Assembly: GCA_015501585.1 (NCBI GenBank)
Contig: JADNRY010000014.1
Coordinates: 496,001-560,000 of the forward strand
From: Rhodocollybia butyracea
Lineage: Eukaryota > Basidiomycota > Agaricomycetes > Agaricales > Omphalotaceae
DNA length: 64,000 nt
Direction: 5' to 3'
The number at the start of each line of letters is the position of its first letter. Position 1 is the first letter of the stretch. Positions 5,334 through 41,800 of the stretch are shown here, piece by piece. Made by a program: the position numbers and the translations under genes. The notes beneath the pieces were generated by a model. It saw only the letters and a list, made by a program, of their open reading frames with translations, did not search any database and was not told the origin of the DNA.

Positions 5334-7490
5334 CTACTGGAAGATCCAGGAGAGGGGGGGTGCGAGGACGTAGCTGAATGACCAGATGTCATGCTGTTTT
5401 TGGTTGCTCGTCTGCTGCTGGGAGGCGTAAACGGCGTCGTAATTCCAGTGCCCAGATTGACTCAAAGGAGAAGAATTGTCTATAATCTGTGTGTTCTGAG
5501 AATAGGAGGTCGAGAAGCTTTGGTCCCTGCGTGAAATGATGATCAGAAGAACGGTGCGATAGCTCTTCGTTCCTATAATAAAGTGAGGGGTGGGATGAAT
5601 AGTTTTGCGGTCGTATTGGTCGACAGATTTTGGACCTGGGTTTTCAGGTAGGGGTGATCGTTGTGAGGGGAAGAAGCGCCACCGTCAGTAATCGGTGGAG
5701 GATCTAACAAACCCAGTGCTGGTAACTTCCCAACGGAGTGGTGGTCCACTGGATAGTTCCCTGATCGAGGCAGGGTGTGCACGTGAGGAGCAGAGGCGGC
5801 GGGGTATTGCTGATAGCCTGACTGCGGCGGGGACATTGAAGGGTTCCATGAGGGAGGAGCATGGTTTAATATCGGTGAGGATGCAGGGGATGATACCGGG
5901 ATTGTAGGTGGAAGATACGACGAGACCGGATCCAACTCGGTTGGTGAGCTACTAGTCCTCACATCCAGCATAGACCTCGAGGCACCAGGGCGCGACAACA
6001 GAGCTCCGTTCTGCAGAATACGAGATGGATCCAACTCAGATGATGAGGTACTAGGTCCCACGTCCGACATGGACCTCAAGGCACTAGAGTGTGACAGCGG
6101 AGTCCCATTCTGTGAAACACGAGAAGCTCTGTCGATCAGAGACGGAGAGGTGACACGACCACCATGATTAGTGTCAGAAGGCAAAACAGGCGACAATGAC
6201 GAGGCTTTGCGAGGGTGTTCTCGGTATACCTCGGCGGAGACGAAGGGTCTTCGCTTGGGTTTCGTTCCGTAGACTTTCTTTTTGGTTAACCCGTGCATCT
6301 GATAGACATCCTGTTAGTTGGGGTCAGATTATGACGAAATTATATTCACCTGTTGAAGTTGAGTTACTAGACTCGGAAGTGCTTCTTCCTCTGAGGATGC
6401 AGATGGAGCTTGTGGGTACATTGGGCGAATGGAAGTTGGTGAAATGTTGCGTTCTAAGGAGAGAGCAAAGAGACTGGTCCAGGATCTATCATGGGGATGC
6501 CACCTGGAAAACGTGAGGATGCAACGGTCGTTACCATATAGTTCGTATTTACGTACTTCAAGAGGGACTACTTGAAATATCATTCATTGAAGTACATAGG
6601 CAATGAGTAGGTTTGACGGAACACTTAAATATATAACAGGGGCTGACCTTGTGGGACCGGGCTCCGTACCAGTGACAAACGCGGAATTATTAGTGACCTG
6701 TTGTTTGAGAACCAGGGCTTATCCTCTGCCATTTTCTGCAACCGAAGCTAAAATCGAGTTATTTTAAGGTGCATGGGCCACAAGAAAGTCTAAGTAGAAC
6801 CTTACCGATTCATCAAACAACAAGTTCAAGGGCTCCGTGGGGCTGACTGTGCTGGCGTGCAGCATGAGATGGCAATATATGCTGCCCTACATAGTCAAAG
6901 TGAGCCATGTCATAAACCAGAAAGAAGGAAAAAGTTTACCAAAGCCAGCGACTGTGCTAAGCGATGCCAATTATCATTATGGGATGAGTATACGTTGTGA
7001 ACGGAGCTGGATCCTATTATGATAATATGACGAGCTATTGAGACAGTAGATGTTAGAAACTTGTGCAATGGTCAGGTCCTGGTCAACGCTGTGAATGTCG
7101 AAGGAGAGCCTCACTTGGATAGCTCCGTTTATCAAAGGAACTGTGAGTCTACAGCTCATAGTTGAGTTGAAGCGTACGTCTCGAATCGCATCTTGATATG
7201 CATAGTATTCTCGATGAGCTGGCGGGATCTCAATGAGAGTTTGATCACTATTAGTAGAGCAAGATTCCTGAACAAAAGTCGTGATCTAACCCACGGTGTC
7301 AGTCACAGTTGGCTTCCACCTAAAACCCACTGACCAGTGCTGAAGGATGTACGGAGCTCAATCTGCTAAAGAGTGCAGGAAGGCATTGATCACGAAGATC
7401 AGACCAAGCAATCTTGGTAAAATGATTGTTATCGACCAGAAGCATTACTGCAACCGTGTTGGCTGGAGGTGCATTGTAGAGTGCCGCCAT
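5334..7490 (-). CDS. Probable Mediator subunit MED25-like protein: VWA domain plus Ser/Pro-rich tail
   Basis: The N-terminal half, spread over several exons, reads like a Med25 VWA domain: NTVAVMLLVDNNHFTKIAW and LRDQCLPALFSRLSSVHPS (7490-7330), LTVPLINGAIQ (near 7140), HIIIIGSSSVHNVYSSHNDN then WHRLAQSLAL (near 7040-6945), and HLMLHASTVSPTEPLNLLFD (near 6870). The C-terminal half (5573-6520) is low-complexity Ser/Pro/Gln sequence starting DVYQMHGLTKKKVYGTKPKR, with a basic patch and two related copies of a LRSMSDV / SRSMLDV...S-ELDP block. A VWA followed by a disordered tail is the MED25 layout. Exon borders between 7090 and 6990 are uncertain. The tail either stops at 5573 or, after a one-base frame change near 5650, continues in Gln-rich sequence to 5334. 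Another VWA protein cannot be excluded. Confidence 0.5.
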
Positions 7491-20844: not shown

Positions 20845-22529
20845 GGTTGACAGCGGTAGTGGGTGATCAAGGTCATCACGTGCCCGTAGAGACAGCTTTG
20901 ACCGGGTCGTCTCGATTATGTAAAGAATATCGATTAAGTTCAAAATGGCCAGTCGAACGGAGCTCACAAGCACAAATCCAAAAAATTCCAGCCGAGCCTT
21001 GGTCTCTAGCTCTTACCCCCATACGAGATCTCTCATTGAAACATATGGCGATACTAGTAAATCATACTAACACTGGCAGGATCCGATTCCAATCGGTAAA
21101 TCATGACTGTTCAATGTTCATTACAACAGTGCCGCTGACCTGAAATGCACAAAATAAGCTCGCGTCCTACGACTAACTCCTCCTATTGTCCCAAAAGGAA
21201 GCCGCGAAGCGACCCAATATCAAAATATCAGATCAAATTCTAGTGTCATCCGATACAGTACCTGCCAGTGAATTTGGGTAAGTACATGATTGCTTCATCG
21301 ATTTCAAGCTGGCCAATGAAAGCTTGCAATCAACTTAGCAATCAATTACAATCATACTATTTATTCCAGTCTAGTGTTAGCGACTCGGATATGTAACTTG
21401 CGTATGACCTTGCATTTATAGGATCAAACACTTTCCGACATTAATGTAAAGCCTAATGGCATAAGCACTCCCAATACTAATGGCTCGGTTTGAAATTTGA
21501 ATCTTTGATATCTACCAGTGTGTACCCATAAACCAAGACGCTGGATTTATCGGTGCCGTACTAGCCGCACCCTAGCGTTTCTGAATTGGACCGGTCCTGA
21601 GTGATTGCCAAACTTGAGGACCAGTGACTCGGAGTACTATGACTGCATCCATCATCAGAGATCAGCTTGCAATTGAAGCACAATAATAATCAGTGGGCGA
21701 CGCACCACTTCGTACCACCAGTATGAAGTTCGGAAGATGGGATGTCATTGGGATTTTGACAGCATATCGGCTTTATCGACCTTCCATTTATCTGTACCTA
21801 TCTTCAAGAATTGTATTTCTTGAATAATTATATATGATATCAAGCGTGTATCAAGGGTATCCACCCATCGTGGTCTTCGACACCACCGTAGCGTCGTACC
21901 ACTAGTATCAACTGGGATGGAGAAGGATATAGCGGGGGCGAATCAAAACTACTTATAGACATTAGTTTGCTTTCTAGCTGTTCGTATACGGGACGCACAT
22001 CCTAGCCTCCCAAATCTAGTAAATAGTACTAGAATAAGAATGCAGCAGATTCGAAATTAGCTGCAAACCACATACCACATGTGTGGGTCCATGCAAAGGA
22101 CCAAGATGCTAAAACCATTCTAACTCTTCCAGGGTCCATCCCTCCCACTGCAAGAAGGGAACAGTCTATCGTTTCCATTCAGTCGGAATTAGCATGTTCT
22201 CGACGCCACTGTGTTCCTTTTTGTTTATTTAATGATCTGACCAACCATTCATACTAGCACTGAGACGAGTGTAGCGGTCATAAGCCGTTCAAGTTTCGAC
22301 TTCATCTTGTCAAGTGGAGCTCCGGTACTACAAGACTATGTACCAGTCGTACCAGTCTAAATGCGAGTTAAGTGATATTTTCCGATTTGGTAGTTTTCAG
22401 AAATTATTTTTTACGGACTCAAGAGCTTGCGTATTGGACGATAGTGATTAAATCCTTCCACAAAAATATATAAGAAGGTGAAAGTTTATCGAGAGGTCAG
22501 GAAGTCAACACCTTTCACATCTCTCTACC
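20845..22529. other. Gene-poor spacer of about 1.7 kb
   Basis: No convincing gene, tRNA or transposon. It contains scattered short repeats of CGTACCA-type sequence (21711-21725, 21895-21905, 22340-22350) in different contexts. A TATA-like ATATATAAG lies at about 22467, some 60 bp before the repeat-protein start. This may be decayed sequence separating the housekeeping block from the accessory block. Confidence 0.4.
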
Positions 22530-23294
22530 ATGAAGCTTACACACACCTTTGTGCTGATCAGCGTTATCTTCACCGCTGCGTTCGGCGCTGTTATTCCTGC
22601 CAGAGAGGTACGATTAACTGCAAGGAGTGCTTGAAAACACTGACGAAGACGATTTATACAGGTTGATGCCGATGAGAGCGACGCAACCTTCATCTGGTCG
22701 AACATGAAGGCTCGGGCTCCAGAGAGCGACTCGACATTCATTTGGCCGAACATGAAAGCTCGTGCCCCAGAGAGCGACTCGACGTTCATTTGGCCAAACA
22801 TGAAAGCTCGTGACCCAGAGAGCGACTCGACATTCATTTGGCCGAACATGAAAGCTCGTGCCCCAGAGAGCGACTCGACGTTCATTTGGCCAAACATGAA
22901 AGCTCGTGACCCAGAGAGCGACTCGACGTTCATTTGGCCCAACATGAAAGCTCGTGACCCAGAGAGCGACTCGACGTTCATTTGGCCAAACATGAAAGCT
23001 CGTGCCCCAGAGAGCGACTCGACGTTCATTTGGCCAAACATGAAAGCTCGTGACCCAGAGAGCGACTCGACGTTCATTTGGCCCAACATGAAAGCTCGTG
23101 CTCCAGAGAGCGACTCGACATTCATTTGGCCGAACATGAAAGCTCGTGCTCCAGACAGCGACTCGACGTTTATTTGGCCCAACATGAAAGCTCGTGCTCC
23201 AGACAGCGACGCGACGTTTATTTGGCCAAACATGAAAGCGCGCGCTCCAGAGGAGGAGAGCGACGAGACGTTCATCTGGTCCAACGTGGATTAG
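22530..23294 (+). CDS. Secreted tandem-repeat protein, candidate processed-peptide (KEP/RiPP-like) precursor
   Basis: Exon 1 (22530-22607) encodes a signal peptide starting MKLTHTFVLISVIFTAAFGA and ending VIPARE. A GT-AG intron (22608-22661) follows, then exon 2 encodes VDADESDATFIWSN and twelve near-identical 16-residue units of the form MKAR(A/D)P(E/D)SDSTFIWPN. The last unit is MKARAPEEESDETFIWSNVD. The DNA repeat period is exactly 48 bp from 22704 to about 23279. Total is about 236 residues with no other domain. A signal peptide plus many short repeats with conserved basic spacers and an invariant aromatic core (TFIW) is the layout of fungal Kex2-processed repeat proteins and of dikaritin-type RiPP precursors. 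The spacer here is KAR, not the usual KR, so processing is inferred. No UstYa-like enzyme was recognised in the window. A structural cell-wall role is the alternative. Confidence 0.75.
22704..23279 (+). repeat. 48-bp tandem repeat, 12 units, coding
   Basis: Each unit begins ATGAAAGCTCGTG and encodes MKARxPxSDSTFIWPN. Differences between units are mostly silent third positions plus A/D at unit residue 5 and E/D at unit residue 7. The last unit carries two extra Glu codons. Period and frame are strictly kept, which shows selection on the protein. The antisense frame is also open through the array, a by-product of the repeat. Confidence 0.95.
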
Positions 23295-23718: not shown

Positions 23719-25044
23719 ATGGCGAGCAAGTTCGTAGCATTTCTCGTCGGACTCTCTGCCGCTTTTGTCTCCTACAACATATACAACTCTCCTCAGAGTG
23801 GTCTTATCATCATGTCAGGCCCAGAAATAAAGACTTTTGAAGCCCCAGAAGTCCTCAAATATGTCGAAAAGATACAGTGCGTTGGCCGTTACTTGAATCG
23901 TTTGTACAAATATCCTCAACGATGTTTATCAGGGCTGTTGCAACGCCAGTCTTCCCAAAGTTGGCCTCGGAAAAAACTGGTTGGGCCATGGCTTGGTGCG
24001 TAGTATTGCTAGTGTGGCGTACTCGTTCTCATAAGAATTTCAGGATTCACCTCGTCGTTTGGAACAGTGTAATTCTAATCCCTTCGGTCCTTGTCCCTTC
24101 ACTTAAATGAAACTCTCAGTGGAAAAGCAGCTACTTCTACGCGGACAAGTTCCCAAAGGACGATTTCCAACATTACTCCGAGTACGCCTTGTTGACAGCG
24201 AAATTTCTGGTGAGTTGCTTATATATCTTCTCTATGCATCTACTTATGTCTACACTTTCTTAAACTCAACAGATTGACCATCATGAAGTGGAAGAGTCCG
24301 ATCTATTTCCTGTTCTAGAGAAGAAAATGGGAGCAGAGTCGATGTCACAAAATGAAGCTCAACATCATGCCTTCCTGCATCAGGTACGAGTTACCCATGT
24401 TCTTCTGCACAACGTTTGACTGATGAAACTATGCAGCTCGAAGGAATTGTTGAATATATTCGCTCGGCACAAATCTCGCCCGCAAAATTCGACGCTGCAA
24501 CATATCGAGCCAAGGTCGATGCAATTCTCGTACCCATCATGCAGCACCTCTCGGATGAGCTCGACACACTTGAGAGCTCGAAGGTTAATCATAATTTCTT
24601 CTGAAAGTTCTGTGCTTATCCTCTACTAGCTCCTTGAGCATTTTTCCGAAAGTGAAATCGACCAAATTAACAAGGCAATCAATAAAGCTTCTCGACAAGG
24701 TGACAATCATAAAATGCTCCCTTTCCTTCTTCGTGCGTATAATTATACTCCGCTCAAATCCTAACTAATGAACGTCACAGAGGTGCGTTAAAAAACTTGA
24801 GACTTTAGGACATGCTTTTATATTACCGTCATATGGTACAGAACCTTCCTCCTAACTCTCCTTTCCCTCCGGCTCCCGGTTTTGTTAAGAACTTACTTGG
24901 ACCTTGGGTCTTCTACTGGAGATACCGTGCACTGTGGAAGGTATGCATTTCCTTGTGTATAGCTATCCCGCCGTTCTAATCCATCTTTTGGTTCAGTACA
25001 CCATGTACCCTATGAAACCCATCCTTTCGGATTCACCTCAGTAA
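23719..25044 (+). CDS. Hemerythrin/HHE cation-binding domain protein with N-terminal membrane segment
   Basis: The N-terminus MASKFVAFLVGLSAAFVSYN suggests a membrane anchor or signal. The core, over several exons, reads WKSSYFYADKFPKDDFQHYS, then IDHHEVEESDLFPVLEKKMG, NEAQHHAFLHQLEGIVEYIR and IMQHLSDELDTLESSKLLEH. HH...E...LFP...E and QHH.F followed by HL.DE are the metal-ligand pattern of the fungal HHE (hemerythrin-like) family. The C-terminus is PPAPGFVKNLLGPWVFYWRY and ends PMKPILSDSPQ at 25044. Introns are numerous (near 24210-24272, 24385-24435, 24584-24630, 24940-24997). The exon structure at 23870-24120 and 24735-24835 could not be settled. Iron or oxygen binding is inferred from the family. 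Confidence 0.6.
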
Positions 25045-35287: not shown

Positions 35288-35886
35288 GGATCTGGAACGT
35301 TGATCCAATGGGTTTCATTAGGCTTTGTCGATTTTCAGAGTGCTGGGGGGGCTGGTGAGGGCTTTGATAAACTTACAGCGCATGAACGTGTTCGTATTAG
35401 CCCTCAATAACCGAGACTATAAAGACGTTGCAGATGAGATATGGTGAGGTCGAACGTGTCAACGTGAGATAACGTGTACGTGTAAAATGAAGCTGGGAAC
35501 AAGAGGAACAGGAAACGCGTGGAAAGAATAAAGCCCTTGGGCGCTTACTGGTTATTCGAGTTTAACTTTTACTTTTCAATTTGTACTTGCGATGGCAGTT
35601 CTTTTTCCAAGACTGAGACAGATGCGAAAAGGTTGTCCAGCTCGTCTCAATCATCCCTCTATTCCTCCGGCTTACTTTGGAAAAAGACACACGCCGGAAC
35701 AACACGTTTTCGAGAAAGGCACGCGGCCGCGAGCTAAAAGAAGCTAAAGAATCAAGATGAGAACCGATATCACAAAAACAGAGCAATTTTTGCCTCGGTG
35801 CATCAGAAAGGGAAGAAGCACGGAGAAAGCGTGGTCATCTCTCTTTCTTTTCTCCGTCAAACTGCCTGGCCGTCTCTGTATAGGCC
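35288..35886. promoter_or_regulatory. Divergent promoter region of EOS1 (-) and alpha-1,3-glucan synthase (+)
   Basis: About 600 bp separate the two starts. A pyrimidine-rich tract (TCTCTCTTTCTTTTCTCCG near 35839) precedes the synthase ATG, typical of fungal core promoters. No TATA box is evident. Confidence 0.35.
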
Positions 35887-38800
35887 ATGAATGTGGCACT
35901 TCAAATATTCGTCTATGCTTTCGCCATCCTCTTGTTCATCTCTTCACCGGTCTCTTCCTCGCCTTACAACCCTGAACTAACCGCCTACAATCTCAATGTC
36001 AACCAAACCGCCACAGATCCAACGGACTACTCCACGACTCGCGCAAACCAAACCTATACCCCCTCACCAGCCAACTGGCGTGCTCTGCCTCTGTACACTA
36101 TATTGTTGGACAAGTATGCTAATGGTGATCCGTCGAATGATAATTTCTTCGGGACAATGTACGAATCGGATGTTAGGGAGACACAGTTGAGGTTTGGTGG
36201 GGATTTAAAGGGACTCGTGGGCCGGCTGGACTATCTACAAGGCATGGGAGTGAGGGTTATTTATATTTCTGGAACGCCGTTCTTGAACATGATTTGGGAG
36301 GCGGACAGTAAGTATCCGAGTCCCGATTTTTTGAACGGTGCAATAACTTATCTTGTAGGCTATTCGCCACTGGACTTTTCGGTACTCGATCCACACTGGG
36401 GTACTTGGGATGACTGGGTTGAAGCCATTGACGAGATTCATGCGCGGGGCATGTATCTCATGTCCGATCTAACAATCGGAACCATGAGTAGTCTAATCGG
36501 GTTCGAAGGGTAGGTTGACTTGAACGCTTCTATTTGCGCGCGTACTCATCTCCGCCTTAGCTTCCTCAACACATCTGCTCCGTTTAGTCTTGAAGAATAC
36601 AACGCCGAATGGCTCAACCCGAACTTCCTACCATGGAATTTCACAGAGTACAAGGACTTCCAAGTATGTTCTACCATGGTTATTTACTCCGCTTAACATC
36701 CCGACCACAGATCAGCAACGTTCGTAACACCTCCTGCGTCCTACCCCAATTCTGGAATGAAGACGGCACCATCGCCACTGTTACTTCTAACGGCTGCCTT
36801 GAATCTGATTTCGACCAATACGGCGATCTCGAAGCGTTCGGTGTATTTCCCGACTGGGAACGCCAGCTCTCGAAATTCGCTGGAGTGCAGGACCGTGTAC
36901 GCGAGTGGAAACCGGGTATGGTGGAGAAATTGACAAGCTTTTCGTGTATGGTTATTGAGGCGCTGGATATTGATGCGATCAGGATCGACAAATCGCTGCA
37001 GGTAACACTGGATGCGTTGGCAAATTGGAGCAACGGCACCAGGATGTGTGCGAAGGCGGTCGGGAAGAACAATTTTTACATCGCAGGTGGGTATCTTCAG
37101 AACTTTCTGAGGGCGTTGTGTGCTGATGGTTTTCTGTAGGTGAAGTTACGGATGGTGATACTTTTGGGTCCCTTTATCTGTAAGCTATTACCTGTACACT
37201 CTCTCACCACCTAACTTCTGTGCTCCAGCGGCCGTGGACGAACACCAGGCATGCGTCCGGCATCCATCTCCGTCGCCGCAAATGTCACATCCGACATGTC
37301 CCAATACTTCCTCCGTCCCGAAGGTCTTAACGCTCTGGACGGCTACGCCTTTCACTACTCCATCTACCGTTCGCTTACCTCCTTCCTTGGTATGGACGGA
37401 AACCTCCTCGACGCCTTCGACCTCTCCACTGACTTTGTCGATGCATGGAACGAGATGTTTGTCAACAATGATTTTTTGAACATCAATACTGGGGAATTCG
37501 ATCCTAGGCACATGTTTGGGACGAGTAATTTCGATGTGTATAGGTGGCCTAGTTTGGCGAATGGAACGCACCAAGCTGCGTTGGGAACTTTTGTCACTTC
37601 GACTTTGATGCCGGGGCTGGTTATGGTGAGCCGAGATTAATTTATTGTTGTAATTGAGTTCTGACTTCGAGATAGTATTATTATGGCGAAGAACAGAACT
37701 TTTACCTGTATGACTCAACCGCAAACAACTATCTTTACGGGTGAGTGGAGTGGATAACATTATGGTGCTTGAGACTGAGAGACTTCAATAGTCGTCAAGC
37801 AATGACATCCAACCAAGCCTGGAAACGACATGGCTGCTATCAACTCGGCTCCCAGCAATACTTCAACATGCCTCTCGATCGAGCCCTCATCGGGTGCAAC
37901 GACCCATGGAACGCCTTGGACCATTTCGATCCAACAGCCCCTACCCGCCGCCTTTGGACACAATTCAACTTTCTTCGTTCCACCTATTCCGCCCTTCTAG
38001 ACGGGTTCGCCCTTACCAAATTAGGCAACTGGACCACCTTTATTGAAAGGCCTGGCTCGGGCGGGGTCCAGACTCAACTAGGACTATGGTCGATATCCCG
38101 CGGTGCAATACCCGGACAGGTGCTCAATGGAACGCATAACGATACCGTTTGGCTGTTCATGTCGAACGAAAATGCCACCGAGACTTGGTCTTTCGACTGC
38201 GACGGTCCTGATTGGATTCCCTCGCCTTACCAGGGAGGCATGGTTGTGCGGAATCTGCTGTATCCGTATGAGAATTATACCTTGCAGGAATCATTGGCGT
38301 CGTATTTCAACAACGGGATGGCGCCGTTTTTTGGGTGTATGGAGAGTATCACGATGGATCCATATGGGTTCAAGATCTTGGTTCTGCAGGATGAGTGGGT
38401 AGAAGTACCGCCTGCGCTGACAGGGTTTTCGCCCGGGCATGATGCCAGGATCTTGTCTAGTCCTAATGACTCGATGTCGGTCAATATCTCACTCGAGTTC
38501 AGCACCGAAATGGATTGTGATAGTGTTACTGGGAGCATCTCTCTATTGATGTCGAGTTCAGGTCATGGATCGACTCCGGCGATAGTCGATACCGTTTGCG
38601 GGCCGTTCAGCAACATTCCTCTAGCCAATAATCTTATCACAGGTGCTTCCCAGACCGCATGGGTCTGGAACGCAACACTCACGAACTTCCCGGATGGTAT
38701 TTTAACGTTGACAGTGAACAATCCTTCCTCGTCATCTGGATTGTCAACGGGGGTACATTATCTTGCTTTTATCTAGCGTTGAGGTGTTGACTCTTTTTTT

Positions 38801-41800
38801 CCCTAGGCTATTGATCACCTTCTTCTACGCAAAGGCCAAGCTGGCAATGTAATGGTCTTTCCGACGAATGACTACAATTCCTCTGCTCTCGTACTTTCAG
38901 ATAGCGGAAATATATATACACATTCAGCGTTTGGCGCAGATATGTTCAGGTACTCGTTAGATTTCGGTCAGACGTGGACAAATTGGAGCCAATGGGAGGA
39001 CACGACGACAGTCAATACTTCGTTCTTTTCTGGTTCAAACATGTTCTGGAAAGGAACCCATCTTATGGTTCAGTGTAAGTATTCTTCGAGCTACTGCAGA
39101 AGACCATGTACTGATCCTTGAATATATGACAGACTGGAGCAATGCCACAATGAGTGCTGAAAGCATTGCCCAAGCTGACTCGGGCTACAACGGTCTTCCG
39201 CGCCGAGTCCCTCAATTCCTTGCTCTCGGTGCATTCAATCAATGGGGTGACAATTTGGGGCCCGAATCTCAGTTTGCCCTGAATTCTGACGGCCTCTGGG
39301 AACTCAAAATCATGGCAGCATGGCCGTCCTTCGTTCAACTGAATGTTTGGGGTATTAATGTCCTGGATTATTACTACGGCGATACCGATGGCGATGGGGT
39401 TCTCGATCGTCTTCCTCCAAATACTGAATCTCCGAACTACTGTAATATGAGCGCTCCGGTGCGTACTCCTCGTTTCTTGATAGACAAACTAAATTGATTG
39501 TTACATTTCTAGCCACACCCTTATCTGTCCTGGTCAATCTTGGTGGATGACTCGACCATGGTGTGGTCTTTGGTACCAAGAGGAACGCAGGCGATCAGTT
39601 TAATAATATACGGTCTTTTAGTCTCAATTCCTCTCATCACTGCGACGCTGGCTGTCCTTATATTCATGGTAGCCTTCTATGGAATCGAGCATAACAAATA
39701 CGGCGTCGCGATAAAATCGAAATACCTCCCCGTTTTTCGTCCTCGTCGAAAAGCTGCATTTTCCGCGGATATGGAATCCGAACTTGCCTTGGTTGATGAA
39801 AAACTTGCTGCTCATGAACAGACGGGGAAGATTATTGGGTGGCCAGAGAATGGTCATAAACGACGGATGGTCTTGATCGCGACGCTCGAGTACGAAATCA
39901 TGGACTGGAATCTCAAGGTTAAGATTGGCGGTCTTGGGGTCATGTCGAGTTTGATGGGCAAAGCAATGACCGATGTTGATCTTATCTGGGTCGTCCCGAA
40001 GGTCAAAGATTTGGAATATCCTTACGGTGATCCTGACGATCCTATCGAGGTCGTGATATTTGGAGAAACATACCTCGTCGACGTCGAGATTCATGTCATG
40101 GATCATATCACCTATGTTATTCTCGATAGCCCTGTATTCCGCGCTCAGACAAAGGCAGATCCATATCCGGCTCGAATGGACGATCTTAGTTCTGCGATTT
40201 TTTATTCTACTTGGAACCAGGCCATTGCTGCTACCATCCGTCGGTATCCGATGATTGATATATATCATATCAACGACTATCACGGTGCTCTCGCCCCCAT
40301 CTACCTTCTTCCAAAAGTCTTCCCGGTCTGTCTTTCCCTACACAATGCCGAGTTTCAAGGCCTGTGGCCTCTGCGGACGAAGGAAGAGATGATAGAGGTC
40401 TGTTCTGCGTTCAACATCACGAAGAAAAACTGCGCCAAATACGTCCAATTCGGAAATACGTTCAACCTTCTTCATGCTGCCGCTGCTTTCATCAGCTTAC
40501 ATCAGAAGAGTGTCGGTGTTGCTGGTGTTTCGGATAAATATGGGAAGCGGAGCTGGGCGCGGTATCCGGCTCTGTGGACGCTCAAGCATGTCGACTCTCT
40601 ACCGAATCCCGATCCAACAGACATTGCAGCTCTTGATGAGAAACCTGTCAAAGCTCGAGGCATTAAGGCCGATCGGAAAGCAGAAGCAGCGAGGCCCGAG
40701 TTGAAGCGTCAAGCGCAAGCTTGGGCTGGGATCCATCAAGATCCAAGCGCACAGTTGTTCGTTTTTGTCGGCAGATGGTCCAAGCAGAAAGGAGTGGACC
40801 TCATTGCGGACATTATGCCTGGACTGTAAGCTTTTTATCGCTTGACTGACGAGGTCTCATCATTTGTACAGGCTTGAAAAAGACAAATCTATTCAGCTCA
40901 TAACTGTTGGTCCTGTCATTGACCTCTACGGTCGTCTAGCTGCCGAAAAGCTCTCTCGTTTGATGGAATTATTCCCAGGTCGTGTGTACTCTAAACCTGA
41001 ATTCACTGCCCTTCCCCCGTACCTTTTTAGTGGGGCCGATTTTGCACTGATACCTTCTCGTGACGAACCATTTGGTCTGGTGGCAGTCGAATTTGGCAGA
41101 AAGGGTGCTCTTGGTGTTGGTAGTCGTCTGGGTGGGCTTGGGTTAATGCCTGGTTGGGTAAGTGAAGGGCATTTACATGGAAAAGACGCTGTTGTTGAAC
41201 TATTTCTTTAGTGGTTTCCAGTGGAGTCGACCTCCACGGCCCATATGTTGTCGCAGTTGACAAAAACAATCAAGATGGCTCTCAAGTCTACTGAGCAGGA
41301 ACGAGCGATTTTACGAGCCCGTTCAGCCATTCAACGATTCCCGGTTGTCGAGTGGCGTCAACGTGTCGAAGATTTCCATCGCCGTAGTATCACCATGAGC
41401 CGTGAACATGCTCATGAAAACGCTTGGAAGCCCTCTGATGGATATGACTACTTTGAGCCCGCAGACGCCAGAAACGAATGGGACGCACAAGCTGAAATCT
41501 ACCCCTCTCACCAGGGACTGAATCGCAGTAGTAGATCAGGACTGGGTAGTCTCGACTCAAGCGCGCGCGCGTCCTTGGAAGCTTTGGTTCCCATCACTAA
41601 CGAACCTATCAATCTTCACCACTCCGAGCGGGAAACCAATCGTGATTCGTATGCGTCTGATACTGGGGATGATTTGCATGCTGTTCTGGATGCAGTGTCT
41701 GAGAGTCATATTGCTACGGATTATGAAAACTTCCTTGATAGAGTGAATAGAATGGTGGCCCGAGACCGACGTCGAGTACCCGATCCTTTCCTTGAAGGTA

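What the first reader, a model, noticed from the sequence alone, without database searches (positions are those of the whole stretch)
22530..23294. Secreted precursor with twelve 16-residue repeats: candidate processed-peptide or RiPP system
A signal peptide, one intron, then twelve almost identical units of MKAR(A/D)P(E/D)SDSTFIWPN and no other domain. Third-position differences are mostly silent while the TFIW core is invariant, so the repeated peptide itself is under selection. This is the layout of fungal Kex2-processed repeat proteins and dikaritin precursors. The basic spacer is KAR, not KR, and the core is Phe-Ile-Trp-Pro rather than Tyr-containing, so it would be an atypical class. No UstYa-like tailoring enzyme is recognised here; the closest neighbour is a hemerythrin-like gene 0.4 kb downstream on the same strand.
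Basis: partly seen in the sequence, partly recalled or inferred. Interest (0 to 1): 0.88.

Follow-up and report, generated by a model that had tools for sequence, protein, structure and literature searches.

The report
Mushroom peptide precursor with single-arginine spacers
A gene of a mushroom, most likely the butter cap Rhodocollybia butyracea, encodes a protein holding thirteen near-identical short peptides in a row; it is predicted to be secreted and would be cut into free peptides at single arginines rather than at the paired basic residues that published searches for such precursors require, so those searches would likely have missed it.

Summary
The repeat array is real. The sense frame looks under purifying selection (7 of 11 core changes silent; P=0.0009 to 0.008 by model). 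There is no dibasic site, Cys or Tyr. The genome is most likely Rhodocollybia butyracea (kexin 100% identical). The gene is single-copy there; two protein searches found no relative and no annotated copy. Most likely it is a secreted multi-peptide precursor, cut after MKAR by a kexin-type protease and trimmed at X-Pro by a Ste13-type peptidase. It works like a Kex2-processed repeat protein (KEP) but fails the published definition, which needs dibasic sites. The same genome holds a classical dibasic KEP with an intron of the same phase at nearly the same place. A dikaritin/RiPP reading is not supported: no UstYa match on this contig, no tyrosine. Against Kex2: a published yeast Kex2 matrix scores Ala at P2 as zero, so the protease is unproven. 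AlphaFold2 gives no support for a folded solenoid (pLDDT 62; antisense decoy 91). New variant of a known kind.

The parts
22467..22473 (+). TATA-like box TATATAA about 60 bp before the ATG
   Evidence: sequence; read by eye, no promoter test for fungi was run
22530..22607 (+). exon 1: MKLTHTFVLISVIFTAAFGAVIPARE; predicted signal peptide followed by a short pro-part ending in VIPAR|E
   Evidence: hydropathy peak 2.63 over 11 residues
22608..22661 (+). phase-0 intron, 54 nt, GTACGA...ATACAG
   Evidence: chosen by splice consensus, no transcript
22662..23294 (+). exon 2: 13 TFIW cores, 12 MKAR spacers each followed by A-P or D-P, and the stop codon
22674..23252 (+). 48-nt tandem array, 12.1 copies
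22662..22703 (+). first, divergent core VDADESDATFIWSN, with no MKAR before it
23232..23291 (+). last, divergent unit MKARAPEEESDETFIWSNVD

Best explanation
The gene encodes thirteen near-identical TFIW peptides separated by twelve MKAR spacers, and it is most likely a secreted precursor that would be cut after the single arginine of each spacer to release short linear peptides. Inferred order of events: (1) the N-terminus takes the protein into the secretory pathway (predicted from hydropathy); (2) a kexin-type protease cuts after Arg in MKAR and after the leader's VIPAR (inferred; a yapsin-like aspartic protease is the alternative); (3) a Ste13-type dipeptidyl aminopeptidase removes the A-P or D-P that begins each fragment (inferred); (4) a Kex1-type carboxypeptidase may remove the C-terminal Arg (inferred; Kex1 was not searched for). 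The predicted main products are ESDSTFIWPNMKAR and ESDSTFIWPNMKA, without UstYa-type cyclisation. The function is presumably signalling or interaction with other organisms, as proposed for other mushroom KEPs; that is analogy only.
For: 13 cores and 12 spacers at exact 48-nt period. Sense-frame purifying selection: K, A and R of the spacer each carry silent codon changes with no replacement in 12 of 12, and T, F and I of the core likewise in 13 of 13. X-P follows the spacer Arg in 12 of 12 (8 A-P, 4 D-P), matching the XA/XP Ste13 signature defined in PMC6339444 (sections 9 and 24). P1' is Ala, Asp or (leader) Glu; a passage of PMC2515848 reports acidic and small residues over-represented at P1'/P2' of sites that Kex2 cut. 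PMC9769878 reports products apparently cut after single arginines and removal of XA/XP when mushroom KEPs were expressed in Pichia. The genome has a kexin (P_proprotein E 1.3e-20; yeast Kexin 2id4 E 2.3e-128) and DPPIV_N family matches, 7 on two contigs. The same genome has a classical KEP with ten SGTGESSAADW units between RR/KR sites, whose preferred model has a phase-0 intron after codon 27; here it is after codon 26. That KEP's own first unit follows a single Arg (AER|SGTG).
Against: No peptide has been observed. The position matrix for yeast Kex2 in PMC2515848 (Table 1, section 7) gives Ala at P2 a score of zero, so KAR would not be predicted as a Kex2 site. The X-P signature is one ancestral motif copied 12 times; its Pro codon is CCA in 12 of 12, so its constancy is not evidence of selection. 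No homolog was found, so conservation between species is untested. The shared intron position rests on two unconfirmed gene models. Only one kexin was found in this genome, and its specificity is unknown.
Confidence: 0.62

Rival explanations
1. A secreted protein that stays whole, such as a cell-wall or surface protein whose 16-residue repeats act as structure or adhesive.
For: No canonical dibasic site; AlphaFold2 puts a short strand at each TFIW (13 strands).
Against: AlphaFold2 confidence is low on the real protein (mean pLDDT 62.3, pTM 0.51) and far higher on an antisense decoy of the same array (91.3, pTM 0.81), so its strands on repeats are not evidence; PMC11795689 reports this failure (listing and start of abstract). 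No Cys, no N-glycosylation sequon, no Pfam domain. The spacer keeps K, A and R through silent changes.
Confidence: 0.22
2. The same precursor, but processed by a monobasic-specific aspartic protease of the yapsin kind rather than by kexin.
For: Single Arg with Ala at P2, which the yeast Kex2 matrix scores zero; yapsin 2 is named as monobasic-specific in a reference title of PMC2515848.
Against: Yapsins were not searched for in this genome. Single-Arg products of mushroom KEPs in Pichia were ascribed, tentatively, to KEX2 by PMC9769878.
Confidence: 0.25
3. A dikaritin-type RiPP precursor whose core is cyclised by UstYa-family enzymes.
For: Repeat layout; UstYa-family exons exist elsewhere in the genome (18 matches).
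Against: No UstYa match on this contig; no Tyr; no peptide-tailoring family among the 20 neighbouring ORFs scanned, which are 19 of the 116 ORFs of 100 codons or more plus one shorter.
Confidence: 0.04
4. The antisense frame is the real gene, or the array is non-coding.
For: One antisense frame is open over the whole array, folds confidently in AlphaFold2 and shows weak silent bias (P 0.048; 0.015 to 0.029 on canonical units).
Against: The sense frame has the stronger bias (P 0.0009), a hydrophobic N-terminal exon, consensus splice sites and a TATA-like box; antisense third positions coincide with sense third positions, which explains the weak signal.
Confidence: 0.03

Closest known systems
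Kex2-processed repeat proteins (KEPs), e.g. Lentinula edodes KEP 2599 (SGTGEASAADW) and its relative in this genome at C495
   Same: Predicted signal peptide, phase-0 intron just after it in the models used here, then near-identical short acidic, Trp-containing units with basic spacers, and no other domain.
   Different: Here the spacer is MKAR (one Arg, no dibasic site), the unit is 16 residues, and the sequence is unrelated; the C495 precursor has ten units between RR or KR.
Alpha-pheromone-type precursors with Ste13 sites, and mushroom KEPs with XA/XP dipeptides (C. cinerea KEP 490115; Pleurotus MSGVAADW precursors)
   Same: X-P dipeptide straight after each cleavage site; [quoted passage not shown]
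   Different: One dipeptide per unit rather than a run; single-Arg site; Trp is followed by Pro-Asn-Met-Lys-Ala-Arg rather than by the cleavage site.
Dikaritins (ustiloxin, phomopsin, asperipin)
   Same: Secreted repeat precursor.
   Different: No Tyr in the core, no UstYa match on the contig, no KR sites.

Membership tests
Kex2-processed repeat protein (KEP) | N-terminal secretion signal | tested here: met
   Hydropathy only: peak 2.63 over 11 residues near residues 7-18. SignalP, which the surveys used, was not available.
Kex2-processed repeat protein (KEP) | At least three near-identical repeats | tested here: met
   13 cores; score 927.
Kex2-processed repeat protein (KEP) | Repeats separated by dibasic Kex2 sites (KR, RR, KK or RK) | tested here: not met
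   Zero dibasic pairs in 236 residues. Requirement read in PMC6339444 section 24, PMC7329392 section 13 and PMC9769878 section 14, first method.
Kex2-processed repeat protein (KEP) | Peptides released in the fungus | not testable with these tools
   Needs mass spectrometry.
Ste13-trimmed KEP / alpha-pheromone type | XA or XP dipeptide directly after the cleavage site | tested here: met
   12 of 12 spacers are followed by A-P or D-P, but this is one motif copied; the leader site is followed by E-V, which does not fit.
Ste13-trimmed KEP / alpha-pheromone type | Kexin and dipeptidyl aminopeptidase family genes in the genome | tested here: met
   Kexin on C1; DPPIV_N matches on C688 and C950. Whether the latter is Ste13 was not established.
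Dikaritin (UstYa-dependent RiPP) | UstYa/DUF3328 gene close to the precursor | tested here: not met
   18 exon matches genome-wide, 0 on contig C428 (counts are lower bounds).
Dikaritin (UstYa-dependent RiPP) | Tyr in the core | tested here: not met
   0 Tyr in 236 residues; requirement from a passage of PMC7329392.

The most novel reading that the evidence does not exclude
Mushrooms have a second, monobasic class of multi-peptide precursor that works alongside the dibasic KEPs in the same cell: MKAR-spaced, Ste13-trimmed, unannotated, and excluded by construction from the published KEP censuses. It releases ESDSTFIWPN-type peptides, so the known inventory of fungal secreted peptides is an undercount.
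Probability: 0.4. Interest if true: 0.62.

Novelty: new variant of a known kind. Interest (0 to 1): 0.45.

Why it matters
The two large KEP surveys and the first method of the Coprinopsis study all ask for dibasic sites. A precursor with thirteen copies of one peptide and no dibasic site would fail each of them, so such precursors may be under-counted. The gene also makes a clean test of whether mushroom kexins, or another protease, cut at single arginines: one genome carries a dibasic and a monobasic precursor side by side.

Tried and rejected
Dikaritin/RiPP: rejected for lack of a UstYa match on the contig and of Tyr.

Folded beta-solenoid: AlphaFold2 on exon 2 gave short strands at low confidence. 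An antisense decoy scored higher, so the model is not used as evidence. A fold search was not accepted, and I did not repeat it.

Paralogs in the genome: other weak matches were looked at for three loci (L010, L019, L022) and are unrelated repeats. The remaining weak matches, several with many stops, were not opened. The TFIW(P/S)N pattern occurs 13 times in the genome, all in this gene; the reversed-pattern control gives 0. The 5-kb neighbourhood matches only itself.

Relatives elsewhere: none at E <= 0.01 among 5719 candidates, none at E <= 10 among 281, no PDB match at E <= 1, no DNA match in prokaryote or viral contigs, where a mushroom gene is not expected.

A second kexin: a search of the genome with a Lentinula paralog (P0115) did not complete. 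Lentinula species show two kexins each; here only one was found.

Kexin pocket: I compared the residues before HGTRC in the 120 listed kexins. The PED-T form of this fungus occurs in 5 of 120 including it. I draw no conclusion, since pocket assignments would be recalled.

AADW-KR pattern: 4 matches, 2 in the control. The two on C495 are the classical KEP; the loci on C697 and C719 show no repeat precursor.

One search used a badly written pattern (amino-acid letters read as bases) and means nothing.

Full report
What is there. On the plus strand an ATG at 22530 opens a 78-nt exon, a 54-nt phase-0 intron follows (22608-22661, GTACGA...ATACAG), and a second exon runs to a stop codon ending at 23294; the product is 236 aa. 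The intron was chosen by consensus; other donor/acceptor pairs also keep the frame, and no transcript was available. The array has a 48-nt period, 12.1 copies, score 927. It holds 13 TFIW cores and 12 MKAR spacers. There is no dibasic pair, no Cys and no Tyr.

It is a gene under constraint. In the ten aligned core codons, 7 of 11 distinct changes between copies are silent, against 18% expected (P=0.0009; 0.0013 to 0.0081 under other substitution weights). In the 12 spacers, 5 of 6 changes are silent (P about 0.004 to 0.006). Silent changes without replacement occur in the codons for K, A and R of the spacer and T, F and I of the core. M, W, S, D, N and the spacer-side P show no change at all, so their constancy is uninformative. 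One antisense frame shares third positions and shows a weaker signal (P=0.048). Copies of a tandem array are not independent, so these P values are guides.

Whose genome. The genome's kexin (C1:266213-268648) is 100% identical over 812 aa to a record named Rhodocollybia butyracea. PMC9769878 names that species as holding a relative of L. edodes KEP 2599 (passage), and this genome has exactly such a gene. The species is therefore most likely R. butyracea (Omphalotaceae).

Copy number and relatives. The core pattern occurs 13 times in the genome, all in this gene. The protein database holds R. butyracea proteins, yet neither protein search returned this one (about 130-413 aa, about 59-189 aa, with a joined query). 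So it is either unannotated or annotated with a very different length. No relative was found, so conservation between species is open.

How it likely works. Each spacer reads MKAR followed by A-P (8) or D-P (4). The leader ends VIPAR|E. Cutting after Arg would leave X-P at the front of each fragment, the dipeptide that Ste13 removes (definition in PMC6339444). PMC9769878 reports products that appear to come from single-Arg cutting and XA/XP removal when mushroom KEPs were expressed in Pichia. The genome has a kexin and DPPIV_N genes. The residues after the cut (A, D, E) fit the over-representation of small and acidic residues at P1'/P2' in PMC2515848 (passage). The main result against is in the same paper: its matrix gives Ala at P2 a score of zero. 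So the protease is the weakest step, and a yapsin-like enzyme is a live rival.

The internal comparison. At C495 the same genome holds ten SGTGESSAADW units between RR or KR sites. In the model I prefer, out of six open splice options listed, its signal exon ends AAPIE and a phase-0 intron follows codon 27; in the window gene the exon ends IPARE and the phase-0 intron follows codon 26. This suggests a shared gene plan but not sequence homology. That KEP's first unit also follows a single Arg.

What it is not. None of 18 UstYa exon matches is on contig C428, and the core has no Tyr. Of 20 neighbouring ORFs scanned (19 of the 116 ORFs of 100 codons or more, plus one shorter), 9 matched Pfam: TPR (2), GH3 (2), diphthamide synthesis (2, below cut-off), EOS1, alpha-amylase and starch synthase. 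None is peptide-tailoring. The hemerythrin-like neighbour is confirmed, with no link beyond closeness. AlphaFold2 gave 62 for the real protein and 91 for an antisense decoy, a known failure on repeats (PMC11795689, listing and start of abstract).

Papers. PMC9769878: abstract, results parts 1 and 2 of 3, discussion, section 14, passages. PMC6339444: abstract, sections 9 and 24, passages. PMC7329392: abstract, section 13, passages. PMC2515848: section 7 and passages. PMC8480192: passages. A full-text search for FIWPN, TFIWP, TFIWSN and FIWPNMK found one paper, on PEP carboxykinase (listing only). Searches for monobasic Kex2 repeat precursors and later STE13/KEP papers listed no paper whose title or abstract start describes a monobasic KEP class. 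Supplementary tables of the surveys could not be read.

Verdict. A real, constrained, probably secreted precursor that works like a KEP but fails the KEP definition on its spacer. New variant of a known kind.

Noticed in passing
L044 (G000:C495, around 448406): A classical dibasic KEP with ten SGTGESSAADW units between RR/KR sites; nearly the peptide (SGTGEASAADW) that PMC9769878 detected in shiitake fruiting bodies.
   Followed up: partly
window 23719-24732: Hemerythrin-like gene with at least six introns, Pfam Hemerythrin E 1.4e-8 on a spliced partial model.
   Followed up: partly
window 5920-6112: A 99-nt imperfect tandem duplication (1.9 copies, 76% matches) inside an open minus-strand frame with no Pfam match.
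   Followed up: no
window 35884-40826: Alpha-amylase and starch-synthase catalytic domains on one strand, as in a fungal alpha-glucan synthase (the name is recalled).
   Followed up: no
L019 (G000:C606, around 379670): A 516-aa open frame with several copies of SKPWG(H)(A/V)WPYQR-type repeats, basic residue at the repeat end; possibly another repeat precursor or an internal repeat.
   Followed up: no
G000 contigs C921/C1161 and C688/C950: Pairs of near-identical UstYa or DPPIV_N matches on two contigs, as if two haplotypes were partly kept apart; the window gene has only one copy.
   Followed up: no
G000:C1:266213-268648: Only one kexin was found here, while Lentinula species list two each; the test with the second paralog did not complete.
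   Followed up: partly
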